A stretch of DNA of 39,914 nucleotides from Cetobacterium sp. ZOR0034. Lineage in GTDB: Bacteria > Fusobacteriota > Fusobacteriia > Fusobacteriales > Fusobacteriaceae. The stretch is taken from positions 1 through 39,914 of the forward strand of contig NZ_JTLI01000104.1 in NCBI RefSeq assembly GCF_000799075.1, in the 5' to 3' direction. The notes under the pieces are model-generated. The model saw only the letters and a list, made by a program, of their open reading frames with translations. It did no database searches and was not told the DNA's origin. Both the position numbers and the translations under genes were made by a program. Positions 2,942 to 39,914 of this stretch are shown here, in pieces (positions within the stretch are counted from its first letter, which is position 1; each line of letters opens with the position of its first letter).

Positions 2942-3730
2942 TTACATTTTTTCAAAAACTGGGCCATCATTAAAAATTGTTATATCTATTTCAAACTCTT
3001 TTTTCAGTATATCTTCTAATAAGTTTGAAAAAACCCATTCACTTTCAAAATGTCCAATATCAATCAGACTAAAGTTTTCCTCTTTTGCATCCATGGCTTC
3101 ATGATATTTTACATCTCCTGTAATTAGAACTCCCGCTCCTAATTTCTTAGCTTTTCTCCAGTACGATGCTCCAGAACCACTTACTAAAGCTATTTTTTTT
3201 ATCTCTTTTTGCTCATTTGCTTTCACTACAGTTATACTATTTAACTCTAATTTTTCTTTCAATATTTCTGATATTTTTTCAAGAGATAAAGCCTCATCTA
3301 GTTTATACACTCTACCAATTCCATATTCAATTCCATTTTTTTCTAAAGGATCTAATATAACTCCATTTTTCAATTTCAATATATTTTCTCCTAAAAAATC
3401 ATTTAATCCATGTTTTGAAGAATCTAGATTTGTATGCATAGAATAAACTGAAATTTTATTTTCAATTAATTTTATTATTTTTTTTCCTGTTAATGTATCA
3501 CCAGTAATATTTTTTAATGGTTTAAATATCATTGGATGATGAGTTATAATTAAATTAGCTCCAACTTCAATAGCTTTATCTATGACCTTCTCAGTTAAAT
3601 CTAAAGCTAAAAGTATTCCATCTATCTTAGAATCTCTTTTTCCTACCAATAATCCAACATTATCCCACTCTTCTGCTAAAGATCTTGGGAATTTTTCTTC
3701 TAAAAAATTTACAAGTTTACTTAACTTCAT
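2942..3730 (-). CDS. Nif3-like dinuclear metal-centre hexameric protein (DUF34)
   Basis: The 262-residue protein carries all metal-ligand motifs of the Nif3/YbgI/YqfO family: His64-His65 in ITHHPM, Asp103 in HTNLD, and His227 with Glu231 in IGHFESE, after the N-terminal EEWDNVGLLVG signature. The family is annotated as GTP cyclohydrolase 1 type 2 homologues, but the physiological reaction is unsettled. This is the short form, without the PII-like insert seen in the roughly 370-residue Firmicute members. Its start overlaps the stop of the sigma-like gene by 4 bases (ATGA), so the two are translationally coupled. Confidence 0.93.
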   Translation of the reverse strand: MKLSKLVNFLEEKFPRSLAEEWDNVGLLVGKRDSKIDGILLALDLTEKVIDKAIEVGANLIITHHPMIFKPLKNITGDTLTGKKIIKLIENKISVYSMHTNLDSSKHGLNDFLGENILKLKNGVILDPLEKNGIEYGIGRVYKLDEALSLEKISEILKEKLELNSITVVKANEQKEIKKIALVSGSGASYWRKAKKLGAGVLITGDVKYHEAMDAKEENFSLIDIGHFESEWVFSNLLEDILKKEFEIDITIFNDGPVFEKM

Positions 3731-4563
3731 ATTTTTAAGCTTCTTCCTCCTCCTAAAGATATTTTAGTTAAAGCCTCTTCAAATAAGTGCTCTCCCTCTC
3801 CTCTTTTTAAATCTAAAGCATTTTCTATCTCAAATAAAGATTCTCTTTTTTCTCCTACTAATCCATAGTATCTTTTAAGTATCTCTTCCTCTGTATGAGA
3901 TATTTTTTTAGGAACAGATGTATAATCTAATTTTTGAAGTTCATTTATCTTCTCTTCTATAATTTCTGATCTCTCTTCCGAAGGAATAGCTTCTACTTCC
4001 TCATCCTCTTCTAATTCAGCAACTATCTCATGCTCTAAAACTTCCTCTTTTCTCTTCAAGAAGTAACCTCTATACATATGTTTCTCTGTTTCTACTCTTT
4101 CGTCAACAAATAATAGCATCTCTCTTCTAACCCATAATTTAATATATTCTAACAGCTCACCATTCGAAGGTCTATACTCATCTAAAGCTTTAATTACTCC
4201 TATGCTTCCCTCTTGAATTAAATCTAAATAGTCTATTCCAGCAATCAGATAATCAAAAGCTATATTTGCAACTTCTCTTAGATTTCCCTCTGTTAATGCA
4301 TGAAGACTCTCCTCTTCGTCTAATGTTTCTAATAATCTTTCTATATCTTTCTTTTCTAACGGTTGTATATATGAAATCTCTTCTAAGTATTCACCTACAA
4401 TTCCTTCTACAACATAGCTGTTATCTTCAACTTTTTCTTCTTTTCTAACATCTATACTATCTAACTCTAATTTTAATCCTGGATTCTCTTTTAAAAATTT
4501 TATAAACTCTTTATCTTCAACACAATTTGTTAATATCTCTTTTTCAAATACTTTTACTTTCAT
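3727..4563 (-). CDS. Degenerate sigma-70 family protein (RpoD paralogue)
   Basis: This 278-residue protein aligns with the neighbouring RpoD. Residues 52-120 follow sigma regions 1.2-2.1, and residues 114-130 (DLIQEGSIGVIKALDEY) nearly copy the core-binding segment of RpoD. Region 2.3 lacks the FSTYATW melting motif (LLEYIKLW instead); region 2.4 is WVRREMLLFVDE. The C-terminus (about 224-268) echoes region 4 (EEEILKRYYGL), but the recognition helix has lost the RERIRQ residues and reads RGEGEHLFE. A long acidic linker separates the halves. It probably binds core RNA polymerase; normal promoter recognition looks doubtful. An attenuator-like hairpin separates it from rpoD, and AAGGGG precedes its ATG. 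It could be an alternative sigma factor or a competitor of RpoD; I cannot decide from sequence. Confidence 0.75.
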   Translation of the reverse strand: MKVKVFEKEILTNCVEDKEFIKFLKENPGLKLELDSIDVRKEEKVEDNSYVVEGIVGEYLEEISYIQPLEKKDIERLLETLDEEESLHALTEGNLREVANIAFDYLIAGIDYLDLIQEGSIGVIKALDEYRPSNGELLEYIKLWVRREMLLFVDERVETEKHMYRGYFLKRKEEVLEHEIVAELEEDEEVEAIPSEERSEIIEEKINELQKLDYTSVPKKISHTEEEILKRYYGLVGEKRESLFEIENALDLKRGEGEHLFEEALTKISLGGGRSLKI

Positions 4564-4618: not shown

Positions 4619-5854
4619 TTATACTTTAAAATCTTCTAATTTTTTTCTTCTACTTGGATGTCTTAATTTTCTAAGAGCTTTCACTTCTATTTGTCTGATT
4701 CTCTCTCTTGTTACTTTAAATATTTTTCCAACCTCTTCTAAAGTTTTCGGAGCACCATCATTCAATCCATATCTGAAGATTAAAACTTGCTCTTCTCTGC
4801 TACTTAAAGTTTTTAAAACATCATTTAATTGCTCTCTAAGTAAAGTTCTATTAGTTAGTTCATATGGATTTTGCATTTTGTTATCCTCTACGAAATCTCC
4901 TAACTCACTATCCTCTTCACTTCCAACTGGAGTTTCTAGAGATATAGGATCTTGATTCATTTCTTGGATACTTTTTATTTTGTCAACTTCCATACCTAAT
5001 CTATCAGCTAAAACTTCTGGAGTAGCATCTTTTCCTGTTTCTTGAAGGTAAATTCTAGCTTCTTTCTTTATTTTATTTATTGTTTCAATCATATGAACTG
5101 GTATACGAATTGTTCTTCCTTGATCAGCTATCGCTCTTGTTATAGCTTGTCTAATCCACCAAGTTGCATAAGTTGAGAATTTATATCCTTTACTGTATTC
5201 AAATTTTTCTACAGCTTTCATCAATCCAATATTTCCTTCTTGAATTAAATCAAGAAGTTTTAATCCTCTATTTGTATGTTTTTTAGCAATACTTACAACT
5301 AGTCTTAAATTCGCTTCTATAAGTTGTTGTTGTGAATATTCGTCACCTTCTAAAGCTGCCTTTGCATATCCTAACTCTTCATCATGAGTTAATAGAGGTA
5401 TCTGCCCAATCTCTCTTAAATACATTTTTATTGGTTCATCAACTTCCATCTCACCAGTAATGCTGAATAAATCATCATTTACTAAGTCATCTTCACTAAC
5501 TTCTTCTATATCATCTGGATTGAAATCGAAATCTTCAGAATACTCTTTACCTTTTTCCTCTTCATCATCGTCATCTTCAAGTTCAACAACAGGTCTCTTT
5601 ATTATTGGAGTTATAATTTTTTTTGCATCTTTTTTATCTTCTTCTTTTCTTTTTGTAACTTCTTGTTTTTTTACATCTGCTTGAGAAACAATTTTAATAC
5701 CTTGTTCCGTCATTCCATTTATTAAAAACTCTATTCTTTCAGGCGGAAAATCTGAACTTAATTTGCTATTAATCTCTTCATAGCTTATTACTTTATTTTC
5801 CATTGCCTTTCTTAATAAAGCTAAAACCTTTTCATTTTTTATAAACTCCTTCAT
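4619..5854 (-). CDS. rpoD: RNA polymerase primary sigma factor (sigma-70/RpoD)
   Basis: The 411-residue housekeeping sigma factor directs RNA polymerase to -10/-35 promoters. Visible in order are region 1.1 (about 1-57), an acidic linker (90-130), region 1.2 ([13 protein letters not shown], 139-151), region 2 with [17 protein letters not shown] (202-218), the melting motif [12 protein letters not shown] (226-237), RTIRIPVHM (247-255), region 3, and region 4 with [20 protein letters not shown] (371-390). A GAGGAGG ribosome-binding site precedes the start. It follows dnaG by 43 bases, the conserved dnaG-rpoD order of the macromolecular-synthesis operon, and is followed by a GC-rich hairpin. Confidence 0.98.
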
Positions 5855-5897: not shown

Positions 5898-7679
5898 TTA
5901 TGCATTGATATTTTTAAACTCTTGATACAATGCTCGAAGGTCATTGAACTCTATTTGCTGTTTCAATTTATCCTCTATTTTTTTCAACTGAATATGCTTT
6001 AAAAGATTTGTTCTCTCTTTTAAAGATTCTTTTAGCTCTAGTATAAACCACGACATAAAAATAATTTGGAATCCTTTTTCTACATCTAATTTATTTGAAA
6101 AATCGTCTATAGAAAGTAAGGATATATTTACCAACTCCTTCTCTTCATCTTGGGTTAAATTTCCTGTTAATATTATATCTTTTATTATATTAGTACTTTT
6201 TTGGTTGTTTTCTAATAAAAATTCAATGTATTCAAATATTTTTCTACCTAAACTACTATTGATTTTTTTATTTCTAAAATCATTAAAATACTCATTTTCA
6301 GAAAGAACTAATGCTAAAGTTAATTTCTCTAGATTACATAGACCTTTTTCGTCTAAATCTTTAGTTTCCTCTTTTTTTTCATAAGTATTTTTTACTCTTT
6401 TTTTGTTATTAACTACTAAAATCGATTTCAATATATCTATATCTATATTCAATGATTTTGATAGTTTATCCATATATAAACTTTTTTCAAGATCATTTTC
6501 TAAGCATTGGAAAAACTCTTTAAATCTATTGATGAAATTCTGCTTAGACATATGATCATCTAAACTATACTCCGCAGAGTATCTATTATATAAATAATCA
6601 AAAGCTTCTAAAGACTCTTTAACCACTTTTAAAAAAGCTTCTTTTCCAAACTTTTTTAAATAATCATCCGGATCTTTTGCGTCTTTATAAACTAATACCC
6701 TTATATTAAAGCCCTCTGATTTTAAAATCATTATTGCTCTTTCTGTTGCTTTTTGCCCAGCCTCATCCATATCAAAAGATAAAATAACATTGCTAGTATA
6801 CTTTTTTAATAGCTGTCCTTGCTCTTCTGTTAAAGCTGTCCCTAGTGGTGCTAATGCAACATCAAATCCATATGAATGTGCTGATAATACATCCATATAT
6901 CCTTCCATCAGTATCGAATAACTCTTCTTTTTTATATTACTTCCTTTTTGAATAAAACCATACAGATTTTTCCCTTTACTGAATATTGGTGTTTCTTGAG
7001 AGTTAATATACTTTGGAATCTCTTTACTATCTTCTAGTGATCTTCCTCCAAAAGCTATAACTTTTCCTGCTACTGAATAGATTGGAAATATTATTCTGTT
7101 TCTAAACGAATCATATATCCCTTTTTCATTCTCTTTAGCAAGACCCAAATCAAATATTTTTTGTTTTGGAAATCCTTTTATTATAAGATAATCATAAAGA
7201 CCTGTCCATAAATTAGGAGCATACCCTATCTCATTATCTTTTATAAGTTTTGGATTTATTTTTCTCTTTGATAAATATTCTAAAGCATCTCTTGCTGTAT
7301 TTTTAAATATCTCTTCTTTGTAATAATTATGAGCTTCTTCCATAATGTCATAATACTCTTTATTTTCATTGACTCTACTATTCCCCACTTTTTTTATTGG
7401 AATATTATATTTTTTTGCTAATTCTTCTACTGCTTCAACAAAAGATATTTTTTTATACTCTGAATAGAATTTTATAGGATTTCCACCTGCACCACAAACA
7501 AAACATTTACAAATATTTTTGCTTGGACTGACTACAAATGATGGGTTGTTGTCTTGATGAAATGGGCATAATCCTTTATAGTTAGCCCCTGTTTTTTTTA
7601 AGTCTACAACCTCTCCTACAACATCTTCAATATGTAATTGTTGTAACAATAAATCAATATCTTCTGATTTATATTTCAT
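5898..7679 (-). CDS. dnaG: DNA primase
   Basis: Primase makes the RNA primers for replication and works with the replicative helicase. The 593-residue protein has an N-terminal CHC2 zinc-binding domain (Cys38, His41, Cys59, Cys62 in CPFH...KCFVC), the RNA-polymerase core with PKYINSQETPIF and KGKNLYG, a TOPRIM fold with MEGYMDVLSAH and SFDMDEAGQKA plus DPDDYLKK, and a long helical C-terminal domain for helicase binding. Length is typical. It is first in the dnaG-rpoD unit, behind a near-consensus promoter at 7748-7776. Confidence 0.97.
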   Translation of the reverse strand: MKYKSEDIDLLLQQLHIEDVVGEVVDLKKTGANYKGLCPFHQDNNPSFVVSPSKNICKCFVCGAGGNPIKFYSEYKKISFVEAVEELAKKYNIPIKKVGNSRVNENKEYYDIMEEAHNYYKEEIFKNTARDALEYLSKRKINPKLIKDNEIGYAPNLWTGLYDYLIIKGFPKQKIFDLGLAKENEKGIYDSFRNRIIFPIYSVAGKVIAFGGRSLEDSKEIPKYINSQETPIFSKGKNLYGFIQKGSNIKKKSYSILMEGYMDVLSAHSYGFDVALAPLGTALTEEQGQLLKKYTSNVILSFDMDEAGQKATERAIMILKSEGFNIRVLVYKDAKDPDDYLKKFGKEAFLKVVKESLEAFDYLYNRYSAEYSLDDHMSKQNFINRFKEFFQCLENDLEKSLYMDKLSKSLNIDIDILKSILVVNNKKRVKNTYEKKEETKDLDEKGLCNLEKLTLALVLSENEYFNDFRNKKINSSLGRKIFEYIEFLLENNQKSTNIIKDIILTGNLTQDEEKELVNISLLSIDDFSNKLDVEKGFQIIFMSWFILELKESLKERTNLLKHIQLKKIEDKLKQQIEFNDLRALYQEFKNINA

Positions 7680-7834: not shown

Positions 7835-9583
7835 TTAATTTTCTGTAGTTCTTGTGCTTAATTCTATCTCTTTTAATGCTTCTTGAGCCTTAGCATTTAT
7901 ATAATCAGATTTAACTTGTTCCATGAATTCTGAAAGCTCTGCTTTCTTCTCTTCTACTTGAACATCTTTTCTATAAATTATATAATCTTTTTGATCTTTT
8001 ATAAATCCGATTTTATCTAATTCAGATCCATAAATTGCTTTTGCTAAATCCTCATTATATCCTAATCCTGGAATATACCCTTCTTCTGTTATTCCATCTA
8101 TCTTTTCAGAGAAAACAATTCCTGCTTCATTTTTCAAATCAGCAAAAGTTATTGTTTTATTAGTTAAATCTGCCACAATTTGAGAAACTTGCTCTAATTT
8201 AGACGCCAATGTTTCTTCAGAAGGTTCAGGAATTATTAAAATATGGCTTGCTGTAACTGTTTCATCAGCATCATTTTTTTCTTGAACAAAAATCAAATGA
8301 TAACCAAATTGAGTTTTTACAACTTCAGGATAAATCTCTCCTGCTTTTCCTGAGAAAGCTGCATCCTCAAACGGTTTTACCATATCTCCCTTTTTAAATG
8401 TTCCTAATGATCCTCCAGCTGGTCCACTTGGTCCATCTGAATTTTTTTTAGCCATTTCAGCAAAGTTTTTAGGAGTCAATTTCTTTAATAACTCCTCTGC
8501 CTTTACTTTTGCTACTTGATCATCAGCTTCTGTTGCTTCCACTTTTAAAATTGCTATATCAGCATCAGCACTTTTTTGTGTATCGTAGTTTAGTCTATTT
8601 TCTTCGAAAAATTCTTTTAAATCATTTTCTGTATATTTAACTTCCGATTTTAATTGAGTATAAAGCTCTTTAACAGAATTTGCAACTTGTAGATCTAAAG
8701 GTAATCCCATTTCTGGTTTTATTCCTTTTTCTTCTGAAGCTTTTAAAAGCTTTATCTCAGATTCAATTGAAGTTTTTGCTAACTCTTTTGCACCTTCAAC
8801 ATCCCCTTTTGTCATAGCTAAGCTATTCAAAATTCTCTTTGCATACTCTACATTTGTTACCTTAATTCCATCAAATTCAAACTCTTCTTTCTCTATATAG
8901 TTATCGAACGTTTTATCTAAATCCTCTAACTTCATCTCTGATCTTGCTTTTGACATCTCTTTAGCATAGATTTCAGAACCTTTTTGAGCTTTTAATCCCT
9001 GCTCAATTTGAGCTTGAACATTTTCTAAAGGCTGACCTTGGAACATTGTATATTTATAATCTGCATAATAATCTGCAATCTCCTCTGGAGTTATCTTTAC
9101 TTCTGCTCCTATCATATCAGAAACTTTTTGTAAAATTAAGTTTTCTCTAATCTCTTTTTCTAACGTCTTTGTTGTATACCCTTGACTTAAAAGCGCATTT
9201 TTGAATTGATCCTTATCTGGGAATGCTGCTTTTATTTGATTCATTTGTTCATCTACTTCTGAACCAGAAACCTTTACTTTAAGTTTATCTCCCATACCTA
9301 ATAAAAGATTTCTATTTATAACCTCATTAAATGCTATTACATTCATTGTCTCTGGATCTATTGTTGGCCCTAAATATCTTTTATAATTTTCAGACATTAT
9401 TGCCATAGATCTATGAGCTTCTACCATAGTAACTTTTTTTCCATTTAATTTAAAAGCCAGTTGTGAATTTGCTGAACCGCTTTTAAATGACATAGCATAA
9501 CCTGCTATTAAACTAATAAAAAAGAATACTGTTACTACCCAGATAACTGGTTTCATATTTTTTCTAAACTTTCTAATTGCCAT
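7835..9583 (-). CDS. Membrane-anchored parvulin-type peptidyl-prolyl isomerase (PpiD/SurA-like)
   Basis: The 582-residue protein has an N-terminal membrane anchor (about residues 12-32, after basic RKFRKNMK) and then a large extracytoplasmic part. Residues 43-175 resemble the SurA/PpiD N-terminal chaperone segment. A parvulin domain runs from about 338 to 437 (NFAEMAKKNSDGPSGPAGGSLG, then GDMVKPFEDAAF and TQFGYHLIFV). A second, degenerate parvulin-like unit starts at ASHILI (445-450) and lacks the later signature. The layout matches PpiD, a periplasmic folding factor for exported and outer-membrane proteins. GGAGGGG precedes the ATG. It lies 31 bases after the response regulator gene, probably in the same transcript, and a strong terminator follows. 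Confidence 0.88.
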   Translation of the reverse strand: MAIRKFRKNMKPVIWVVTVFFFISLIAGYAMSFKSGSANSQLAFKLNGKKVTMVEAHRSMAIMSENYKRYLGPTIDPETMNVIAFNEVINRNLLLGMGDKLKVKVSGSEVDEQMNQIKAAFPDKDQFKNALLSQGYTTKTLEKEIRENLILQKVSDMIGAEVKITPEEIADYYADYKYTMFQGQPLENVQAQIEQGLKAQKGSEIYAKEMSKARSEMKLEDLDKTFDNYIEKEEFEFDGIKVTNVEYAKRILNSLAMTKGDVEGAKELAKTSIESEIKLLKASEEKGIKPEMGLPLDLQVANSVKELYTQLKSEVKYTENDLKEFFEENRLNYDTQKSADADIAILKVEATEADDQVAKVKAEELLKKLTPKNFAEMAKKNSDGPSGPAGGSLGTFKKGDMVKPFEDAAFSGKAGEIYPEVVKTQFGYHLIFVQEKNDADETVTASHILIIPEPSEETLASKLEQVSQIVADLTNKTITFADLKNEAGIVFSEKIDGITEEGYIPGLGYNEDLAKAIYGSELDKIGFIKDQKDYIIYRKDVQVEEKKAELSEFMEQVKSDYINAKAQEALKEIELSTRTTEN

Positions 9584-9614: not shown

Positions 9615-11000
9615 TTATTTTGTATCTAATCCGTACTTTCTTATTTTCTCATAAAGAGTTGTTCTTCCAATTCCTAAAAGCTTAGAAGTTTCCTGCTTAT
9701 TCCATCTTGTTTTTTGTAATGCCATAGCTATTACAACTTTTTCAACTTCATCTAAAGCATAGATCTCTTGCTCTAATATATTTTTTAAAGGTCCTACTCC
9801 AATTACAGTTTTATTTTCAACTGTATCAGATTTCATTTTAATTTCTAAAGGTAAATCCTCTACATCAATATTTCTATCGTTACATAAAATTACCATTCTT
9901 TCAATCATGTTTTTTAACTCTCTAATATTTCCAGGGTATGAATATTCCATTAAATATTTCATAGCATCTCCAGAAATTACAGGAATCTCTCTTCTTAAAT
10001 CTTTTACTATTTTATTTAAGAAATAGTTTGCTAACATAGGAATATCATCTTTTCTATCTCTTAGAGGTGGAACTTCAATTGGGAAAGCTGTTAATCTATG
10101 GTATAAATCTTTTCTGAATTTACCTTTTTCAGTTTCCTCTTTTAAATCTCTATTTGTTGAAACAATAAATCTAACATCTACTCTTCTAGATTTATTTCCT
10201 CCAACTCTTCTGAACTCTCCATATTCAATAACTCTTAAAACTTTAGATTGAGCTTTTAAATCCATAGCTGAAATCTCATCTAAGAATACAGTTCCTCCAT
10301 CAGCCTCTTCTAAAATTCCCTTTTTACTTGTTGTCGCTCCTAAGAAAGCTCCTCTTTCATATCCAAATAACTCTCTTTCGATTAAATCTTCTGGTAATGA
10401 AGCACAAGAGATTGTGATGTAGTTTTCTTTTCTTCTATCACTTTTCTTAAATATCTCTTTAGCAATTAACTCTTTTCCTACTCCGTTTTCTCCAGTTATT
10501 AAAACTGTTAAATCACTTTCAGCAACCTTCTCGATTAAGTTTTTAACCTCTTTAACTCTTGCAGATTGTCCAATGATTTCATTTTCATCTTCGCTATCTG
10601 AAAGTTTCTCTTCTAATTTTCTTTTCTCTTTTACAATTTCTAAGTTTCTTAAAGCTGGTATCATTATTCTGTTCATTTCTTTTACATCTACTGGTTTTAA
10701 TAAGTAGTTATAAATATCAGCTTCCTTCATTTCTTGAATTAAAGCTTCGTTTTCTTCGTCTAATAATCCGATTACAACAAAGTCCTTTCCTATTCCATTT
10801 AATTTTCTTTTTGCTTCTGAGAAGTTAAACCAAGTTAAGTATTCATCTAATAATACCACATCAAAGTCACTCTCTCTTAACATATCTAACGCATCTAACA
10901 GGTTATTAAATGTAATTATTTCATAAACTTCTGACAAAGCTTTTCTTACTTGTTTTAACGTTTCTTTTCTTTCTGAAACTACTAATATCGATTTTTTCAT
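9615..11000 (-). CDS. NtrC-family response regulator with GAFLGA loop
   Basis: The 461-residue protein has an N-terminal receiver domain (phosphoacceptor Asp52 in VVLLDEY, Lys102 in LLKP), a AAA+ domain with Walker A GENGVGKE (170-177), Walker B VFLDE ending at Asp241-Glu242 and arginine-finger region FRKDLYHRL, and a C-terminal Fis-type helix-turn-helix (about 420-458). In the receiver, the usual acidic pair near the N-terminus is S9-E10. The sigma-54 contact loop, normally GAFTGA, reads GAFLGA (217-222), so ordinary sigma-54 activation is uncertain. No sensor kinase gene is adjacent. It has its own promoter with an inverted repeat over the -35 box and precedes a foldase gene, hinting at an envelope-related role. 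Confidence 0.92.
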   Translation of the reverse strand: MKKSILVVSERKETLKQVRKALSEVYEIITFNNLLDALDMLRESDFDVVLLDEYLTWFNFSEAKRKLNGIGKDFVVIGLLDEENEALIQEMKEADIYNYLLKPVDVKEMNRIMIPALRNLEIVKEKRKLEEKLSDSEDENEIIGQSARVKEVKNLIEKVAESDLTVLITGENGVGKELIAKEIFKKSDRRKENYITISCASLPEDLIERELFGYERGAFLGATTSKKGILEEADGGTVFLDEISAMDLKAQSKVLRVIEYGEFRRVGGNKSRRVDVRFIVSTNRDLKEETEKGKFRKDLYHRLTAFPIEVPPLRDRKDDIPMLANYFLNKIVKDLRREIPVISGDAMKYLMEYSYPGNIRELKNMIERMVILCNDRNIDVEDLPLEIKMKSDTVENKTVIGVGPLKNILEQEIYALDEVEKVVIAMALQKTRWNKQETSKLLGIGRTTLYEKIRKYGLDTK

Positions 11001-11034
11001 TTTTCCTCCTATTTTCTATTTTCGTTAACAATGT

Positions 11035-11063
11035 ATTATAATTGATATTTTGTTATTTTTCAA
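11035..11063 (-). promoter_or_regulatory. Sigma-70 promoter of the response regulator/foldase unit
   Basis: On the minus strand TTGAAA (11058-11063) and TATAAT (11035-11040) are separated by 17 bases; predicted start is near 11028. A strong AGGAGG ribosome-binding site follows in the leader. The presence of a good sigma-70 promoter shows that this unit itself need not depend on sigma-54. Confidence 0.75.
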
Positions 11064-11077
11064 GACTTTTTTGAAAA
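11057..11077. promoter_or_regulatory. Operator-like inverted repeat over the -35 box
   Basis: TTTTCAA (11057-11063), a 7-base spacer and TTGAAAA (11071-11077) form a perfect 7-bp inverted repeat that covers the -35 element. The position fits a repressor or autoregulatory site. AT-rich sequence makes chance repeats common, so the call is weak. Confidence 0.35.
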
Positions 11078-11159: not shown

Positions 11160-11768
11160 CTATTTTACTATCGATTTCAAAAACAGATTATAATACATAT
11201 CTATCTCTTTATCTATGTCTAAAGTAGCATATTTTTCTACCATTTTTTTATAACTTTCTTCACTTGTTACTGAAACTCCAGTTTGTGTAATTAAAAATAA
11301 CAATAATGCAGTTAAAGATGAACTTAGCATTGTTCTTATTTTTTCAATCTCATCTTTATATTCATCTTTTATATGCTCTTTATTGTTTGCTAAAAACTCG
11401 CTAAAAATTATATCTCTTTTCATATATTCATCATAAGTTAAGTTTATCTCTCCGTTTTCATATATTTTTGCGAATAAAAACAGATTATATCTATCATCTC
11501 TTAAACTTAATCTTCTTCTTACTATCATTTTTAGTTTATCTTCAAAAGGTATATCTAAATCTCCAACCTCTTTTAAAAATTCTCTTCTGCTTATTACAGA
11601 GTTATCCATTATCTCCTGTAACAACTCCTCTTTACTCTTAAAATAGTAATAGAAACCTCCTTTGGCCATTTCTAAAACATTTGCTATATCCTCTATCTTC
11701 GTATTTCTTATTCCATTTGCTGCAAATAAAATTGTTGCAGTTCTTTTTATACGATCTCTTTTAGTCAC
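11160..11768 (-). CDS. TetR/AcrR-family transcriptional regulator
   Basis: The 202-residue protein has the TetR N-terminal helix-turn-helix: RIKRTATILFAANGIRNTKIEDIANVLEMAKGG-type spacing with the diagnostic GGFYYYFKSKEELL (residues about 37-50). The rest is an all-helical ligand-binding and dimerisation domain whose sequence does not reveal an inducer. It follows rseP by 22 bases and may be the last gene of the uppS-rseP string. Two inverted repeats lie between it and the response regulator gene. The regulated genes are unknown; self-regulation or control of the neighbouring unit is possible. Confidence 0.92.
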   Translation of the reverse strand: MTKRDRIKRTATILFAANGIRNTKIEDIANVLEMAKGGFYYYFKSKEELLQEIMDNSVISRREFLKEVGDLDIPFEDKLKMIVRRRLSLRDDRYNLFLFAKIYENGEINLTYDEYMKRDIIFSEFLANNKEHIKDEYKDEIEKIRTMLSSSLTALLLFLITQTGVSVTSEESYKKMVEKYATLDIDKEIDMYYNLFLKSIVK

Positions 11769-11790: not shown

Positions 11791-12819
11791 TTAAATTTTA
11801 AAAATATTAAATAAATCATTAGCAGTTGCAAATATTATAAGACCAAACAACAGTAACATTCCTGCTGTATGAACTCTTTCTTCTAGCTTTTTATCAACTT
11901 TTATTCCTACTAACTCTAAAATTACAAATATTATTCTTCCACCATCTAAAGCAGGGAATGGTAATAAATTAAATATACCTACATTTACAGATAAAATAGC
12001 TAGCAACCACACCAGTATTCCAGAACTTTGACTTCTACTAGCATCTCCCACAACTTTTACTATCCCTACAGGTCCACTTATATCTTTCGCTTTTACCTTT
12101 CCTGTTAAAAGCATCTTTACTCCACCTAAAGTATCTTCAAAGACACCTACAAATATTTTTGAAGCTTGCTTCACTCCTTCAACTACTCCAAATTTTTCAA
12201 AAGTATACTCTGGAATTATCCCCATTATAGGAGCTCTTTCATCACTTACTTTTGTTAAAGGAACTTGAAGATCTAAATCTTTTCCATCTCTTTCTACAAC
12301 AATATCTAAAATGTCCTTAGTTGCAGAATCTTTTGAAACGGTTTCACCTATATCACTCCATGTAACTATCTTTACACCTTCAATCTCTTTTATTACATCT
12401 TTCTCTTTTAAAACAGTTGAAGCTTTAACATCTTTTATTATACTTCCTACTACAGGATTTGTATTTTGAACTCCCTTACCTGAAGCAAATGTAACTCCTA
12501 GTATAACTAAAAATGCTAACATAAAGTTCATAAATACACCCGCAAACAAAACTGTAAATCTTGCAAGAGGGGATTTACTATTAAATCCATTTTCAACTTT
12601 ACTATCTACTTCCATACCATCTATATTTACAAAACCACCAATTGGTATTATTCTCACCGAATATAATGTTCTTCCTGTGTAGTAAGAATATAGTTCTGGT
12701 CCCATTCCTATTGCAAACTCTGAAACAGGCATTCTAAAAAATCTAGCCGCTAAAAAATGTCCTAACTCATGTATAAAAATTATAACTCCTAGTAGCAGTA
12801 GCGCTATCAATATATCCAT
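11791..12819 (-). CDS. rseP: Site-2 intramembrane zinc metalloprotease RseP/RasP
   Basis: RseP-type proteases cut membrane-embedded substrates such as anti-sigma factors and signal-peptide remnants. The 342-residue protein has the zinc motif HELGH (17-21) in the first membrane helix, a single PDZ domain (about 115-200), and the second active-site motif NLLPFPALDGGR in the C-terminal membrane part, which supplies the third zinc ligand, Asp. Hydrophobic segments are visible near 1-25, 90-112, 262-290 and 318-336. The gene order uppS-cdsA-dxr-(tmk)-rseP matches the widespread envelope cluster. Confidence 0.96.
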   Translation of the reverse strand: MDILIALLLLGVIIFIHELGHFLAARFFRMPVSEFAIGMGPELYSYYTGRTLYSVRIIPIGGFVNIDGMEVDSKVENGFNSKSPLARFTVLFAGVFMNFMLAFLVILGVTFASGKGVQNTNPVVGSIIKDVKASTVLKEKDVIKEIEGVKIVTWSDIGETVSKDSATKDILDIVVERDGKDLDLQVPLTKVSDERAPIMGIIPEYTFEKFGVVEGVKQASKIFVGVFEDTLGGVKMLLTGKVKAKDISGPVGIVKVVGDASRSQSSGILVWLLAILSVNVGIFNLLPFPALDGGRIIFVILELVGIKVDKKLEERVHTAGMLLLFGLIIFATANDLFNIFKI

Positions 12820-34780: not shown

Positions 34781-37700
34781 TTATACAATACTCTCTTCAC
34801 ACATTACCTTAGCTTGTTTTAATAATAGTTCTGTTGTATCCTCTGTGTCTGCTGGAGGATAACCAAACTTTCTAAGAAGTCTTCTGATAGATGTTCTCAT
34901 CTTAGCTTGTATGCTCTCTTTATCATACCAATCTATAGTCATATTTTTTCTAATAGTCTCTGTCAGCTCTTTTGTTATCTGTACCAGTATATCATCACCT
35001 AACATCTCTTTTACTTTTTCATCACGAGTTAAAGCATCATAGAAAGCTACCTCATCCTCAGTTAAACCAAGTGAGTCACCCTCTTTATGAGTTTCCATAA
35101 ACTCCTTAGCCATCTTTAGCAGTTCTTCCATTATCTCTAAACTTGTTAAAGCCTTATTTCTATATGAGCTCATAGCCTTTTGAAGTCTTTGTGAGAACTT
35201 TTCAGCTACCACCAGATTTCTTCTGCTAGAGTATTTAATCTTACCCTCTATTAGTTTTCTTAACATCTCAACAGCTAAATTTTTATATTTTATCTTCTCA
35301 ACCTCTTTTAAAAATTGATCTGAAAGAATAGATATATCCGCATTATCTAATCCTAATTCAGAATAAACATCTATAACCTCTTCAGATATAATTGTTTTAG
35401 ACATAAGTGCTGCTATTCTTTCATTTATCTGAGCCTGAGTTAGTTTCTTAGGATTATCTCCTTTATCCTCAGTTTCTAACTTAATAACACTAGCTTTAAC
35501 AGCTTTAAAATAGCTTATCTCATCATTTAAAGCCTGTCCATCACGAGTTGTTATACATAGAGAATGAGCCTTAGCTAGTGCTAAAACATTATCAATAAAT
35601 CTTTTTTTAATTCCAGGTTCATCATTTTCAAAACCTAAGATGTAATCCATACCCTCTATAATAACTCTAGCACGCTCTAAAGCACTACTACTTTTATATT
35701 TTGAATAATCAAAGTGATGGAATATCTCTTTTAGAATTTCATAGTGTTCAATCATAAGAGCTACCGCTTTTTCTGTATCTACTCCAGTGCACTTTTGATC
35801 ATTTGGTGTATATTGTCTTAATGCTTTTTTAAGTGCATCTCCTATTCCAATATAGTCTACAACTAAGCCACCAGTTTTATCTTTGTATACTCTATTTACC
35901 CTTGCAATAGCTTGCATTAAGTTATGCCCTACCATAGGCTTATCAATATACATAGTATGCATTGATGGAACGTCAAACCCTGTTAGCCACATATCACGAA
36001 CTATAACAATCTCTAACTCGTCACTGTCATCTTTCATTCTATTAGCAAGCTCTTCTCTCTCCTGCTTTGTAGTAAAGTGCTGCTTAAACTCCATAGGGTC
36101 TTTACTAATATCACTTGTCATAACAACTTTTATTTTTCCCTTAGTCTTATCTTCGCTGTGCCACTCTGGTCTTAAGCTTACAATCTCGTTATATAAATCC
36201 ATACATATTTTACGAGACATAGCTACTATCATACATTTACCAAAGGCATTATCTCTTCTCATCTCCCAGTGTTCTATAAAATCCTCTGCCAAAGTTCTTA
36301 TTCTATTTTGTGAACCAATAATAGCTTCCATTTTTGTAATATCTTTTTTAGTATGTTCAACAATTCCTTCGTCTTGACCTTCCATAATCTCTTCAAAATC
36401 ACCATCAAGTTCAGATAAAATAGGGTATGGAATGTCTAGCTTTACAAATCTATTTTCATAATATATTTTAACCGTAGCTCCATCTTCAACAGCTCTACTC
36501 ATATCGTAAGTATCTATGTAGTTACCAAATACAGCAGTTGTAGATTTATCATCAAAATCTATGGGCGTTCCTGTAAATCCAATATAATTTGCATTGGGAA
36601 GTGCATCACGAATATGTTTAGCGTACCCGTATTTACTATTTCCATCTGCATCCATTTTAGCATCTAAACCATACTGCGATCTATGAGCTTCATCAGCTAT
36701 AATATATATGTCATTTCTAGTACTAATAGCCTCTACAATCTCACCAGCTTTAGGAGCAAACTTCTGTATTGTAGAGAATATTATTCCACCACTACTTACA
36801 TTTAGTAATTCTTTTAATCTATCTTTATCGTCTGCTTGTTTTGGTGTCTCTATTAGATAACTTTGAGCTTTTGAGAAAGTTCCGAAAAGTTGATTATCCA
36901 AATCATTTCTATCAGTTAAAACTATAACTGTTGGATTATTAAACTTTTTCATAAGTTGTCCCGTATAAAATGTCATAGTTAGAGATTTTCCACTACCTTG
37001 AGTATGCCAAACAACACCAATTTTTCCATCATTGCTACGAGCATCTGCTGTCTTTTCCAGTGCTTTTTTTATGGCAAAGAACTGGTGATACTGAGCTAAT
37101 ATCTTTATCTTTTCATTTTTACTTTGAAGAAACAAAATATAGTCATGAGTTAACTCTAATACTCTTTCCTTAGATAGCATTCCACGAGTTAAAACTTCCA
37201 TCATTAAAGAGTTTGTATCGGCTATTGTAACCCCATCTATACTTCTAAAGCTCATAAATCTCTCTTCATTTGATGATATCGTTCCAGCTTTTGCATTAAC
37301 TCCATCACTTATAATGATAAAAGAGTTATATTTAAAAAGATTCCCAATCTCATATTTATATCTTTCAATTTGAGTATATGCTTCTTTTATACCTACATTA
37401 TCATTACTTAGAGATTTTAACTCTATAACTACAAGAGGTAATCCATTGATAAATAGTATTATATCTGGTCTACGTCTAGATTTTCCCACTATTGTAAATT
37501 GATTTATTGCTTGAAACTCATTTTTTTTAATATTTTTAAAATCTATTAAATATATTTTTCCACCAGAACGTTTGTTCCCATCCTTGTCTTTATACTCTCC
37601 TACATCCACTCCATTGACTAGCATATTATGAAACTCTTCATTACTCTTAATCAAGTTAGGATGTGAAAGTAGTATTACTTTTCTAATAGCTTCCTCTTTA

Positions 37701-37873
37701 GTAGAGGTTGGCATATCTTTATTTATGTTATAAACTGCTGTTCTTAAATTATCTTCTAGTATTACTGAATGATAGTCATCTCTCTCTAATTTTCTACCAT
37801 CAATACATTCCCATCCCAAATCTTCTAATATTTCAAGATAGGCTACTTCTAATTCATCCTCTGTAAAATTCAT
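34781..37873 (-). CDS. hsdR: Type I restriction endonuclease subunit R
   Basis: HsdR is the motor and nuclease subunit of a type I restriction-modification complex. The 1030-residue protein has the PD-(D/E)xK nuclease (Asp137 in RPDIILF, then Glu151 and Lys153 in VVIELKS), a superfamily 2 translocase with Walker A TQGSGKS (291-297), VLTDRNDLDNQLF, DEAH (394-397) in IIADEAHRSQYG and FTGTPIDF, MWLTGFDVPSMHTMYIDKP, and a C-terminal helical HsdS/M-binding domain. No frameshift or truncation is seen. It is preceded by AGGGGG. It follows fic by 26 bases; hsdM must lie beyond the window. Confidence 0.96.
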   Translation of the reverse strand: MNFTEDELEVAYLEILEDLGWECIDGRKLERDDYHSVILEDNLRTAVYNINKDMPTSTKEEAIRKVILLSHPNLIKSNEEFHNMLVNGVDVGEYKDKDGNKRSGGKIYLIDFKNIKKNEFQAINQFTIVGKSRRRPDIILFINGLPLVVIELKSLSNDNVGIKEAYTQIERYKYEIGNLFKYNSFIIISDGVNAKAGTISSNEERFMSFRSIDGVTIADTNSLMMEVLTRGMLSKERVLELTHDYILFLQSKNEKIKILAQYHQFFAIKKALEKTADARSNDGKIGVVWHTQGSGKSLTMTFYTGQLMKKFNNPTVIVLTDRNDLDNQLFGTFSKAQSYLIETPKQADDKDRLKELLNVSSGGIIFSTIQKFAPKAGEIVEAISTRNDIYIIADEAHRSQYGLDAKMDADGNSKYGYAKHIRDALPNANYIGFTGTPIDFDDKSTTAVFGNYIDTYDMSRAVEDGATVKIYYENRFVKLDIPYPILSELDGDFEEIMEGQDEGIVEHTKKDITKMEAIIGSQNRIRTLAEDFIEHWEMRRDNAFGKCMIVAMSRKICMDLYNEIVSLRPEWHSEDKTKGKIKVVMTSDISKDPMEFKQHFTTKQEREELANRMKDDSDELEIVIVRDMWLTGFDVPSMHTMYIDKPMVGHNLMQAIARVNRVYKDKTGGLVVDYIGIGDALKKALRQYTPNDQKCTGVDTEKAVALMIEHYEILKEIFHHFDYSKYKSSSALERARVIIEGMDYILGFENDEPGIKKRFIDNVLALAKAHSLCITTRDGQALNDEISYFKAVKASVIKLETEDKGDNPKKLTQAQINERIAALMSKTIISEEVIDVYSELGLDNADISILSDQFLKEVEKIKYKNLAVEMLRKLIEGKIKYSSRRNLVVAEKFSQRLQKAMSSYRNKALTSLEIMEELLKMAKEFMETHKEGDSLGLTEDEVAFYDALTRDEKVKEMLGDDILVQITKELTETIRKNMTIDWYDKESIQAKMRTSIRRLLRKFGYPPADTEDTTELLLKQAKVMCEESIV

Positions 37874-37899
37874 TGCTATGCCCCCTAAATTATTTTGAT

Positions 37900-38727
37900 T
37901 TATTCAAAAATTTTTATCTCTTTTAATTCAATGTCTTTGCTGTATAAAAGCTTCAAAAAAAACTCTTCTAAATATGTAAAATTAGGAGATATTTTTTTGG
38001 GAATATTGCTGTAATTTGAAGCCACCAAAGAGTTTCTGAAATACATTGAATTTTCTCTGAAAAGATCATTATTTACAATATAGCCCATACTTAAAAGATA
38101 TTTCTGAATGAAAACTGCAACAGTTCGAGTATTTCCTTCTATAAAAGGGTGTATCTGCCATATTGCAGATGTAAATCGAGCTAAACTTTTAATCTGCTTA
38201 TCTAAACTCATTTCTGAATAATTTTTACTGCTTTCATTTTCAAAATCATATTTCAGAAACTCATCTATTGTAGTGTACTCTCCATATATAACAGTATCAC
38301 CATTTAAAACTGGTTCTTTTTTAGAGATATTGTATTTTCTGTATTCTCCAATGCTGTTATCTCTTTCATCTAGTAGAAGTTCAGAAAAAAGTTTTCTATG
38401 AATACTCTTCAGTTGAATAGGACTAAAAACAAAAGCTCTATCTTCTAGAAGTTTTGCAATTCTTGTAGAGACTATGTCACACTCCATTTCAGAATAATTG
38501 ATAGAATTTTTATCCTGTTTACTGTAATAATTTTTTAAATCCTTCTCTATTTCATCAAAGGTCTTTTTTCCTTCTATAGATTCTTTTGTAAGTTGGATAA
38601 GATAAGAGGATGGAGTTAATCCATCTACCTCATTTAACCCTATTCCAACTTCCCAGTTTTCTATTCTCTTTTCCACTGGGGTATCATACTCTTTTATGAT
38701 TTCATATCGAATATCTTTTAGCGTCAT
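37900..38727 (-). CDS. Fic-domain protein with N-terminal antitoxin-like segment
   Basis: Fic proteins transfer AMP or related groups to target proteins. The 275-residue protein has the active-site motif HPFIEGNTR (193-201) with catalytic His193; the usual GNGR is GNTR here. The substrate-clamping flap is SIGEYRKYNI (about 125-134). Residues 24-68 (ENWEVGIGLNEVDGLTPSSY then a helical TKESIEGKKTFDEIEKDLKNYY) resemble the VbhA-type antitoxin fold fused to the N-terminus; in it, the inhibitory (S/T)xxxE(G/N) motif would correspond to LNEVDG, with Asp instead of Glu. This alignment is from memory and is tentative. It sits inside the hsd operon, between an unknown gene and hsdR. Confidence 0.88.
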   Translation of the reverse strand: MTLKDIRYEIIKEYDTPVEKRIENWEVGIGLNEVDGLTPSSYLIQLTKESIEGKKTFDEIEKDLKNYYSKQDKNSINYSEMECDIVSTRIAKLLEDRAFVFSPIQLKSIHRKLFSELLLDERDNSIGEYRKYNISKKEPVLNGDTVIYGEYTTIDEFLKYDFENESSKNYSEMSLDKQIKSLARFTSAIWQIHPFIEGNTRTVAVFIQKYLLSMGYIVNNDLFRENSMYFRNSLVASNYSNIPKKISPNFTYLEEFFLKLLYSKDIELKEIKIFE

Positions 38728-38748
38728 TTTAATTTTTTCACCTCATTT

Positions 38749-39261
38749 TTAAAATGGAAAATCTTCACCTGAGTAATCTATATCTATAATCTCTGAACCA
38801 TCATCATCTTCATAAATACAGTCATCATATTTGCTTCTAAACTCTTCTAACATAAAACTTTTTTTCAGAATATTATTTAATTTAGTTCCTGAGTAATTAC
38901 TTCCTAATTTTTCAAATCCATCTTTTAAAACTTTTAAATATTTTTTCTCCATAGGAACTAAAGTATATAGAAGACTCTCTTTATATATAACAGTTGGATT
39001 ATCTAAAGAAAAGAGATTCTTAAATCCAGATAACTTTAACTTATTATTTTCTACTTTTTCCACTTTCCTAAATTGAATCTTATTACCATAGAATTGATTT
39101 TTATCAATAGGACTTACCTGTCTATAATAAACAAGAACTCCATCACCATTTTCTAACCTGTCTAAAGATTTTAAAGGATTATTATTTAAAAAATTCTCTA
39201 TCTCTTCAAAAGCTAAATCAGAAACTTTAATCATTTTTTCATCACAACAACTACATTTCAT
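38749..39261 (-). CDS. Unknown 170-aa protein in the hsd operon
   Basis: I do not recognise this protein. The N-terminus MKCSCCDEKM contains C-S-C-C, a possible metal site. Residues about 40-100 look beta-rich (DGVLVYYRQVSPIDKNQFYG, KIQFRKVEKVENNKLKLSGF), and the C-terminus is acidic (YDDCIYEDDDGSEIIDIDY). It has no signal or membrane segment. Its ATG follows the hsdS stop without a gap (TAGATG) with GAGG 5 bases upstream, so it is translationally linked to hsdS. A role in protecting or regulating the R-M or Fic components is possible, but no family evidence supports it. Confidence 0.7.
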   Translation of the reverse strand: MKCSCCDEKMIKVSDLAFEEIENFLNNNPLKSLDRLENGDGVLVYYRQVSPIDKNQFYGNKIQFRKVEKVENNKLKLSGFKNLFSLDNPTVIYKESLLYTLVPMEKKYLKVLKDGFEKLGSNYSGTKLNNILKKSFMLEEFRSKYDDCIYEDDDGSEIIDIDYSGEDFPF

Positions 39262-39914
39262 CTATACCTCAACCTCCCCACTCATAAGTTTAGGAAGAAG
39301 AGTATCTCTTATTTCTGTTAGAGATTGGATTTCTTTTTCTAAGTTCTGAATTTTTTTATTAAAAGATTCTGTAATTTCAAAATATTTTTTTAAAATTAAA
39401 TCTGATGGAATTGTAATATTTATACTTTTCATTCCCTGACTTGATATTTCTTTAAATGTTGAACCCCCCGCAATTGATTCTATATGAGGAGTTATTTCTT
39501 TAAGCAATTGATAAATAAATTCAGTGTTTTCAGAATTATTAGGAATAATAGATTTAAACCCTTGATTAGTTGTTACGTTTACTTCAGCTATAGCCAAATA
39601 TCCAATGGGAGCTCTTGAACTAAATAAAACTGTTCCTTTTGGAAGAAGTTTTGTACTACTTTTAGCCAATCCTTTTTCTGTTATATCTAAACTTCCTTTT
39701 GTTATGAATTTATTTTTATTTAAAGATAAATCTTTTGGTGTTATCCATGGTATTCCATTTTTAGTATAATATTCTTCATTAGATTTGGAAGGTGTTCCTC
39801 CGCTTGCAATTATTCCTATATTCTCAAAGTTTCCTACTTCCCATCCCTCTGGAATCTCTCCAAGTTCACTATCTACCATTTTTCCACCACTACTTCTATA
39901 TGGCTCTCCATTCT
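39262..39914 (-). CDS. hsdS: Type I R-M specificity subunit S, 5' part missing at window edge
   Basis: HsdS chooses the target DNA sequence of a type I system. The frame is open to the end of the window: bases 39880-39914 encode NGEPYRSSGGK directly before MVDSELGEIPEGWEV, so the ATG at 39879 is internal rather than the start. NGEPYRSSGGKM...ELGEIPEGW is the central conserved region seen between the two target-recognition domains; what is visible is the second recognition domain (GTPSKSNEEYY, PWITPKDLSL, KGTVLFSSRAPIGYLAI, NQGFKSI) followed by the C-terminal coiled coil ending IRDTLLPKLMSGEVEV. The first half and probably hsdM lie outside the window. Confidence 0.95.
   Translation of the reverse strand, partial: NGEPYRSSGGKMVDSELGEIPEGWEVGNFENIGIIASGGTPSKSNEEYYTKNGIPWITPKDLSLNKNKFITKGSLDITEKGLAKSSTKLLPKGTVLFSSRAPIGYLAIAEVNVTTNQGFKSIIPNNSENTEFIYQLLKEITPHIESIAGGSTFKEISSQGMKSINITIPSDLILKKYFEITESFNKKIQNLEKEIQSLTEIRDTLLPKLMSGEVEV

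What the first reader, a model, noticed from the sequence alone, without database searches (positions are those of the whole stretch)
9615..11000. Orphan NtrC-type regulator with GAFLGA instead of GAFTGA
The Thr of the sigma-54 contact loop is replaced by Leu (residue 220), and the receiver acidic pair is S9-E10. The Asp52 and Lys102 phosphorylation residues and the ATPase residues remain. No sensor kinase is adjacent, and its own promoter is sigma-70-like. It may be a regulator that has moved away from sigma-54 control, comparable to TyrR-like members, and is linked to a periplasmic foldase.
Basis: partly seen in the sequence, partly recalled or inferred. Interest (0 to 1): 0.5.

Follow-up and report, generated by a model that had tools for sequence, protein, structure and literature searches.

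The report
Regulator uncoupled from sigma-54
This gene encodes a transcription regulator built like the activators that normally work only with the sigma-54 factor, but across its bacterial family the contact point for sigma-54 has been lost and the gene is kept even where sigma-54 seems to be gone, so it very probably now works with the ordinary RNA polymerase.

Summary
Confirmed and extended. Window 11000..9615 (-) encodes a 461-aa NtrC-type regulator reading GAFLGA. In 57 distinct orthologues the Thr position carries nine residues (P19 L13 T10 Q5 S5 I2 V1 E1 H1), while Walker A and the HTH are nearly frozen. All 23 other activators of two rpoN+ genomes keep Thr or Ser there. The window's own genome HAS rpoN, but 17 of 18 Fusobacteriaceae genomes without detectable rpoN keep the gene. 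No Fusobacteriaceae orthologue combines Thr220 with Walker-B Asp-Glu; the two from other families do. Its promoter is a conserved sigma-70 type; a SurA/PpiD-like foldase gene follows directly in 54 of 61 genomes. Best reading: an ancestral sigma-54 activator that became a sigma-70-linked regulator, possibly of envelope genes. The principle is known (RcNtrC, HupR, TyrR, VpsR) and was predicted for an F. nucleatum homologue in 2011. New here: the family-wide natural history, a second such regulator (paralogue B) and the near-invariant DNA-binding domain. Regulon and mechanism are untested.

The parts
9615..11000 (-). NtrC-type response regulator with defective sigma-54 contact loop (gene A)
10671..10988 (-). 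receiver domain, residues 5-110: Asp52 and Lys102 kept, acidic pair Ser9-Glu10, switch Thr position is Leu79
10074..10577 (-). AAA+ Sigma54_activat domain, residues 142-309
10341..10343 (-). codon 220 (TTA, Leu) in place of the Thr/Ser of GAFTGA
9633..9755 (-). HTH_8 DNA-binding domain, residues 416-456, nearly invariant in 57 orthologues
11032..11065 (-). conserved sigma-70-type promoter of gene A (-35 at 11063..11058, -10 at 11040..11035) with extra conserved bases
7835..9583 (-). SurA/PpiD-like peptidyl-prolyl isomerase, 31 bp downstream; linkage conserved
5898..7679 (-). dnaG, downstream neighbour
4619..5854 (-). rpoD, downstream neighbour
11160..11768 (-). TetR-type regulator gene upstream; directly before gene A in loci of genera g1 and g2 only
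11791..12819 (-). M50 peptidase (RseP-like), upstream neighbour

Best explanation
Gene A descends from a canonical sigma-54 activator and is now a sigma-70-linked transcription regulator. SHOWN: loss of the Thr/Ser contact, persistence where rpoN is not found, an ATP-binding site and putative Arg fingers kept while catalytic residues drift, an almost invariant HTH, a conserved sigma-70-type promoter, and linkage to a foldase gene. INFERRED: it binds ATP, forms an oligomer through the AAA+ domain and binds DNA near sigma-70 promoters, where it recruits or blocks RNA polymerase instead of remodelling sigma-54. It probably regulates its own promoter and, less surely, a set of envelope genes (foldase; RND pump in several genera). 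The receiver is probably not switched by the usual phospho-Thr mechanism.
For: Residue 220: 9 residues and 14 parsimony changes, joint fifth of 254 AAA+ positions, while G213, G221, Walker A G170/G173/G175/K176 and R302 never change. Control: 23 of 23 non-A/B activators of two rpoN+ genomes have T (21) or S (2). rpoN clear in 45 of 98 genomes; A kept in 17 of the 18 rpoN-less Fusobacteriaceae genomes, none with Thr220, one with Ser. The three g8 genomes (3-4 contigs each) and G037 (one contig) have only A and B as high-scoring activators. Walker-B Glu242 is E39 D14 Q4 and sensor-I Asn283 N38 D16 S3; T220 with Walker-B DE occurs only in the two orthologues from other families, f2 and f3. HTH identity 90% against 72% (AAA+) and 67% (receiver). 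Promoter with extra-core conservation, found once in the genome apart from one 3-mismatch site. Foldase gene next in 54 of 61.
Against: The window's species has rpoN, and its own copy keeps all ATPase residues, so the altered loop is the only AAA+ defect there. Ten of 57 orthologues have Thr and 5 have Ser; by genome, 17 of 45 rpoN+ genomes have T or S. Genomes are related, so the counts are not independent events. No experiment; no target promoter other than its own is proposed, and even self-binding is inferred. Six of the 18 rpoN-less genomes are under 90% complete, and G057 may have rpoN in an assembly gap, since it carries an intact GAFSGA activator at a contig edge.
Confidence: 0.72

Rival explanations
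1. Still a sigma-54 activator: GAFLGA is a tolerated loop variant in Cetobacterium.
For: rpoN and a sigma-54-type promoter sequence exist in this genome; the ATPase residues are intact in the window protein; Thr is kept in 10 of 57 orthologues.
Against: Thr or Ser in 23 of 23 other activators of two rpoN+ genomes; the family is kept in rpoN-less genomes; Francke et al. [quoted passage not shown]
Confidence: 0.07
2. A sigma-70 regulator that still needs ATP hydrolysis, as proposed for Caulobacter NtrC.
For: Walker B DE and sensor-I Asn are intact in the window protein; PMC10274813, passages seen, reports that Walker A and Walker B mutants of Caulobacter NtrC did not grow in ammonium medium.
Against: Walker-B Glu is Asp or Gln in 18 of 57 orthologues and sensor-I Asn is Asp or Ser in 19 of 57; paralogue B lacks the Walker-B acids.
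Confidence: 0.3
3. A local autoregulator of its own operon, not a regulator of many genes.
For: The conserved promoter pattern has one exact match in the genome and one 3-mismatch match.
Against: In the HTH, 20 of the 23 positions 431-453 are invariant in 57 proteins, stronger than one site seems to need.
Confidence: 0.3
4. A decaying relic without function.
For: Catalytic and switch residues drift; the copy in G027 is split into two frames and that in G056 is cut short.
Against: Present in 60 of 61 Fusobacteriaceae genomes with nearly frozen HTH, Walker A, Asp52 and Lys102.
Confidence: 0.02

Closest known systems
Rhodobacter capsulatus NtrC and HupR (sigma-70-acting relatives of NtrC)
   Same: NtrC-type layout with a defective GAFTGA loop; RcNtrC acts with sigma-70 and needs ATP binding rather than hydrolysis (as summarised in PMC10274813, passages seen; HupR from Francke 2011; the primary papers were not read)
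   Different: In RcNtrC the loop is deleted; here it keeps its length and the Thr position varies. RcNtrC has the kinase NtrB (a reference title); no kinase gene is adjacent here, and the receiver's switch Thr is Leu
TyrR / DhaR
   Same: sigma-70 regulators related to sigma-54 activators (Francke 2011)
   Different: No receiver there (recalled); the TyrR and DhaR models score far below cut-off
Vibrio cholerae VpsR
   Same: NtrC-type, lacks GAFTGA, regulates sigma-70 promoters; hit by fold search
   Different: Binds c-di-GMP (title of PDB entry 7v2b); about 25% identical in that alignment
Fusobacterium nucleatum putative EBP with Glu at the Thr position
   Same: Same phylum, no sigma-54, proposed to be sigma-70-dependent (Francke 2011)
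   Different: Glu, not Leu; the paper calls it orthologous to PhhR; whether it is gene A or paralogue B was not determined, because no genome identified as F. nucleatum was examined here
Aquifex NtrC1 / Brucella NtrX
   Same: Best structural matches (1ny5, 5m7p)
   Different: NtrC1 has GAFTGA in the alignment shown; both are otherwise only 30-40% identical

Membership tests
sigma-54-dependent NtrC-type activators | Thr (or Ser) in the GAFTGA loop | tested here: not met
   Leu220; 42 of 57 orthologues have neither T nor S
sigma-54-dependent NtrC-type activators | Walker A and B, sensor I, Arg fingers | tested here: met
   In the window protein all are present; the assignment of R296/R302 as Arg fingers and N283 as sensor I is recalled from related proteins; in the family Walker B and sensor I drift
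sigma-54-dependent NtrC-type activators | rpoN present | tested here: met
   G000:C35, PF04552 and PF04963
sigma-54-dependent NtrC-type activators | activates a sigma-54 promoter | not testable with these tools
   no -24/-12 site with 10 of 11 consensus bases in the window, two with 9
phospho-switched receiver domains | acidic pair, phospho-Asp, Thr/Ser switch, Lys | tested here: not met
   Asp52 57 of 57 and Lys102 56 of 57 are met; the switch position is Leu in 57 of 57; the first acid is Ser/Ala in 57 of 57
sigma-70-acting, GAFTGA-defective NtrC relatives (RcNtrC, HupR, VpsR kind) | contact loop defective | tested here: met
sigma-70-acting, GAFTGA-defective NtrC relatives (RcNtrC, HupR, VpsR kind) | works without sigma-54 | tested here: inconclusive
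   the gene is kept in 17 of 18 rpoN-less family genomes; function not assayed
sigma-70-acting, GAFTGA-defective NtrC relatives (RcNtrC, HupR, VpsR kind) | regulates sigma-70 promoters | not testable with these tools
   own promoter is sigma-70-like but binding was not measured
TyrR | NCBIfam TyrR cut-off of 576 bits | tested here: not met
   243.8 bits
NtrC (nitrogen regulation NR(I)) equivalog | TIGR01818 cut-off of 558.6 bits | tested here: not met
   334.6 bits

The most novel reading that the evidence does not exclude
In Fusobacteriaceae two ex-sigma-54 activators (gene A beside the foldase, paralogue B beside ExbB/ExbD/TonB-like genes and dnaX) were turned into permanent sigma-70 regulators of the cell envelope that use ATP binding, not hydrolysis, as the switch. 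In lineages with the RND pump operon, a PII-like protein encoded just upstream of gene A feeds it an adenine-nucleotide or metabolic signal in place of a histidine kinase.
Probability: 0.2. Interest if true: 0.75.

Novelty: new variant of a known kind. Interest (0 to 1): 0.5.

Why it matters
Sigma-54 activators are usually recognised by their domains, and this family scores far over the cut-off of Pfam's sigma-54 activation domain, so it invites the wrong annotation. The family is a natural experiment on how an ATP-driven activator is rewired to the housekeeping polymerase: single orthologues from two other families keep the full set of residues, the Fusobacteriaceae show graded decay of loop and catalytic residues, and rpoN is absent from several genera while the regulator stays. 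Its near-frozen DNA-binding domain suggests that it controls something important in a phylum whose envelope regulation is little known.

Tried and rejected
1. rpoN loss in this organism as the cause of GAFLGA: rejected, rpoN is present. 2. GAFLGA as a fixed fusobacterial motif: rejected. 3. A cognate kinase beside the gene in older lineages: the gene of 466-472 aa after A in f2, f3 and g7 is SelA-like in the two copies tested, L024 and L093. 4. A regulon search with the conserved promoter pattern gave only the gene's own promoter and one 3-mismatch site, so no regulon was defined. 5. A GTACA-like box some 15-28 bp upstream of the -35: 4 of 25 clade representatives against 0.25 expected from mononucleotide shuffles (8 of 25 against 0.75 for the looser WGTNC), three further representatives having no such promoter; clades are related and the patterns were chosen after looking; kept as weak. 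6. Two tandem TCT-N8/9-ACA elements in the promoter: seen by eye, not tested. 7. The first sigma-54 scan had an index error and found nothing; redone. 8. G057 as an rpoN-less genome: doubtful. 9. A and B as obligate partners: G048 has B without A, and no B-like match was seen in g7 genomes G039/G040. 10. Literature: 10 searches of an open-licence library only; the search for Fusobacterium with GAFTGA gave one paper, Francke 2011, of which passages were read. Of PMC10274813, PMC11005410 and PMC12316311 passages only.

Rows dropped before counts: from the orthologue alignment L002 (duplicate), L097 (paralogue), L032 and L033 (Deltaproteobacteria), L096 (split gene of G027), L031/L095 (cut after 351 aa, G056) and exact duplicates, leaving 57. 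In the genome tally the regex missed 5 of 62 genomes; these were read from the alignments (G041, G042, G043, G046 Pro; G062 Thr). For rpoN the tool counts 53 of 98 genomes with any match and 48 over the cut-off; I counted only those over 60 bits (45), the others lying under 26 bits; the 45 were typed from the list. In one search the 15 comparison promoters seem to include one that is really a gene-A promoter (L143), which makes that contrast conservative; several come from related genomes. In one search the five low-scoring PF00158 matches (under 31 bits) of the two control genomes were not part of the 23.

Full report
What is there. The finding's gene (called gene A) is real: 461 aa, ATG, window 11000..9615 on the minus strand. 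Pfam gives Response_reg (5-110, 36 bits), Sigma54_activat (142-309, 221 bits), AAA_lid_14 and HTH_8 (416-456). The loop reads GAFLGA, Leu220, codon TTA at 10341-10343. None of the 25 NCBIfam models shown (of 35 hits) reaches its cut-off, NtrC, AtoC and TyrR included, so it fits none of those named subfamilies.

Which organism. The best public matches are Cetobacterium assemblies at 95-99% identity, so the window is from a Cetobacterium-like Fusobacteriaceae genome (G000, 2.74 Mb, 121 contigs, 98.5% complete).

rpoN is present here. The own genome has PF04552 (136 bits) and PF04963 (164 bits) side by side in one 401-aa ORF. It has three high-scoring PF00158 proteins: gene A, a paralogue B (GAFEGA) and a 585-aa protein with intact GAFTGA. 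The gene after the 585-aa one has TGGAACAGAAATTGCT upstream, 10 of 11 matches to the sigma-54 consensus; all loci held then (1.16 Mb) contained five distinct sites of that quality. I take that next gene for a cysteine desulfidase by eye, not by a search. So sigma-54 seems to be in use in this organism, just not, on this evidence, through gene A.

The contact residue is free to vary. In 57 distinct orthologues, position 220 is P19 L13 T10 Q5 S5 I2 V1 E1 H1. On a tree built without the loop columns it needs 14 changes; only four of 254 AAA+ positions need more. F212, G213, G221, G228 and Walker A G170, E171, G173, G175, K176 never change, nor do R277 and R302; R296 changes once. As a control I took all 27 high-scoring PF00158 proteins (over 170 bits) of two rpoN+ genomes. 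Of these, 23 are neither A nor B and all have Thr (21) or Ser (2) there. An earlier sample also showed only Thr or Ser in the intact non-A/B activators of rpoN+ genomes, but it was picked mostly from the top of the score list and is biased.

The gene outlives sigma-54. All 98 held genomes of the phylum were searched. Gene A is in 60 of 61 Fusobacteriaceae (family f1; missing only in G048; split in G027, cut short in G056), in the single genomes of f2 and f3, and in 0 of 33 of f4 (weak matches in two f4 genomes and a more distant relative in f6 not counted). Clear rpoN (over 60 bits) is in 45 of 98. The 18 f1 genomes without it were rechecked with a second sigma-54 domain: 0 of 18, while the three positive controls rang. 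Twelve of the 18 are at least 90% complete. Seventeen of the 18 keep gene A. Residue 220 by rpoN status: with rpoN (45 genomes) T13 S4 L13 P9 Q4 V1 I1; without (17) P11 S1 L1 I1 E1 H1 Q1 (five rows completed). These genomes are related, so the counts are not independent events. G057 should be discounted: it has an intact GAFSGA activator at a contig edge, so its rpoN may lie in a gap. The strongest cases are the three g8 genomes (3-4 contigs each) and G037 (one contig), where A and B are the only high-scoring activators left.

The ATPase is decaying too, but not evenly. Walker-B Glu242 is E39 D14 Q4, Asp241 is D52 E5, sensor-I Asn283 is N38 D16 S3. Thr220 together with Walker-B Asp-Glu occurs only in the orthologues from families f2 and f3 (L093, L028); no Fusobacteriaceae row has both. 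Four Fusobacteriaceae rows of genus g5 have Ser with Asp-Glu but Asp at 283, and one row (L015) has Ser with Asp-Glu and Asn. This fits a canonical ancestor and loss of the sigma-54-remodelling function within the family, with ATP binding and subunit contacts still selected. The window's own copy keeps the full ATPase set, so hydrolysis may still occur in Cetobacterium.

The receiver. Asp52 is kept in 57 of 57 and Lys102 in 56 of 57, but the position of the switch Thr/Ser is Leu79 in 57 of 57, and the first acid of the pair is Ser or Ala in all (register from the alignment to NtrC1). The fold is predicted normal (mean pLDDT 84; best PDB matches NtrC1 1ny5 and Brucella NtrX). A standard phospho-switch is therefore doubtful, though Asp52 must matter for something.

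DNA-binding domain and promoter. Residues 431-453 are invariant except positions 432, 439 and 441; mean pairwise identity is 90% for the HTH, 72% for AAA+ and 67% for the receiver. A TTGA(W)(D)-N17-TA(Y)(W)AT promoter lies upstream in 53 of 57, followed directly by ACA in 47 (the match in L093 may be chance, since two other searches found none there). Among 41 distinct well-matched promoters, bases outside the -35 and -10 are unusually conserved: T two bases before the -35 (40 of 41), ACA and ATC in the spacer (33-37 of 41 for each base) and ACA after the -10 (37-41 of 41). In 15 other promoter-like sites found in the loci the same bases occur in 1 to 9 of 15. The pattern has one exact match in the own genome and one 3-mismatch match. 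Something other than polymerase alone probably binds there; the regulator itself is the obvious candidate, but this is inference.

Neighbourhood. Of 61 genomes whose locus holds a gene after A, the SurA/PpiD-like foldase is next in 54, within three genes in 5, and not within three in 2 (f2 and f3). Upstream there are two main arrangements, besides others: rseP-tmk-dxr-cdsA-uppS (as in the window), or a large ORF of RND-pump size within two genes (14 of 62). In one locus, L024, that ORF and its partner were tested and are an AcrB-type pump and an HlyD-type adaptor; the rest are judged by size and place. In several genera a protein of about 100 aa lies between the pump and A. The two copies scanned have no Pfam match, but the predicted fold is PII-like (mean pLDDT 80; best matches TTHA0516 2cz4 and CPII). 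The shared theme is the envelope. That gene A regulates these genes is a guess from position.

A second case, and a third. Paralogue B (25 distinct rows) has its Walker-B acids replaced, by Gly-Asn in 23 of 25, and a loop with E, K, P, Q, rarely T, or no recognisable motif, yet a conserved HTH (84% mean identity). In the window's genome it follows ExbB/ExbD/TonB-like genes and precedes dnaX (names by eye). In two rpoN-less genomes (G002, 98% complete; G047, 78%) a full-length homologue of the 585-aa GAFTGA protein (28-29% identity) has lost the loop motif (L160, L162). So loss of the sigma-54 contact is seen in A, in B and in this third type.

What is known. Francke et al. 2011 (PMC3162934, passages) noted that F. 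nucleatum has no sigma-54 but a putative activator with Glu at the Thr position, and proposed sigma-70 dependence. They also noted about 110 such deviants with a preference for Pro, the commonest residue here. PMC10274813 (passages) describes RcNtrC, VpsR and Caulobacter NtrC as sigma-70-acting relatives with different needs for ATP. The kind is thus known. I did not find this family, its graded decay, its co-occurrence with rpoN, the frozen HTH or the linkage to foldase and pump in the ten searches listed under Tried and rejected, which cover open-licence papers only.

Verdict. A real and well-supported case of a regulator family uncoupled from sigma-54: confidence about 0.9 for the uncoupling in the family as a whole, 0.72 for the sigma-70 mechanism as stated, and low for any named regulon.

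Noticed in passing
L003:1102-2493 (G000:C8) and 24 further distinct rows: Paralogue B: NtrC-type protein with Walker-B acids replaced (LHLGNIE) and an aberrant loop, near ExbB/ExbD/TonB-like genes and dnaX; conserved HTH.
   Followed up: partly
L160 (G002:C6) and L162 (G047:C25): In genomes without detected rpoN a full-length homologue of the 585-aa GAFTGA activator has lost the loop motif and altered its Walker A.
   Followed up: partly
L014:5500-5805, L024:5508-5804 and relatives; stand-alone homologue at G000:C14:95835-96116: A protein of about 100 aa with predicted PII-like fold and no Pfam match, encoded between a pump gene and gene A in several genera, and beside an RND-like gene (by eye) elsewhere (L243).
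   Followed up: partly
L024:7421-8824, L093:5408-6808, L028:2808-4226: A divergent SelA-like protein (PF03841, 84 bits in the first two; the third by resemblance) encoded directly after gene A.
   Followed up: partly
window 3727-4563: 278-aa protein with only a sigma-70 region 2 match (42.6 bits), directly downstream of rpoD.
   Followed up: no
L001:2621-2636: Sigma-54-type promoter sequence TGGAACAGAAATTGCT between the GAFTGA activator gene and the next gene in the window's genome.
   Followed up: partly
L096 (G027:C1:2973084-2974465): Gene A is split into two overlapping frames in this single-contig genome; real disruption or sequencing error not decided.
   Followed up: no
window 34781-39912: Large ORFs that look by eye like a type I restriction-modification locus; not searched.
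   Followed up: no
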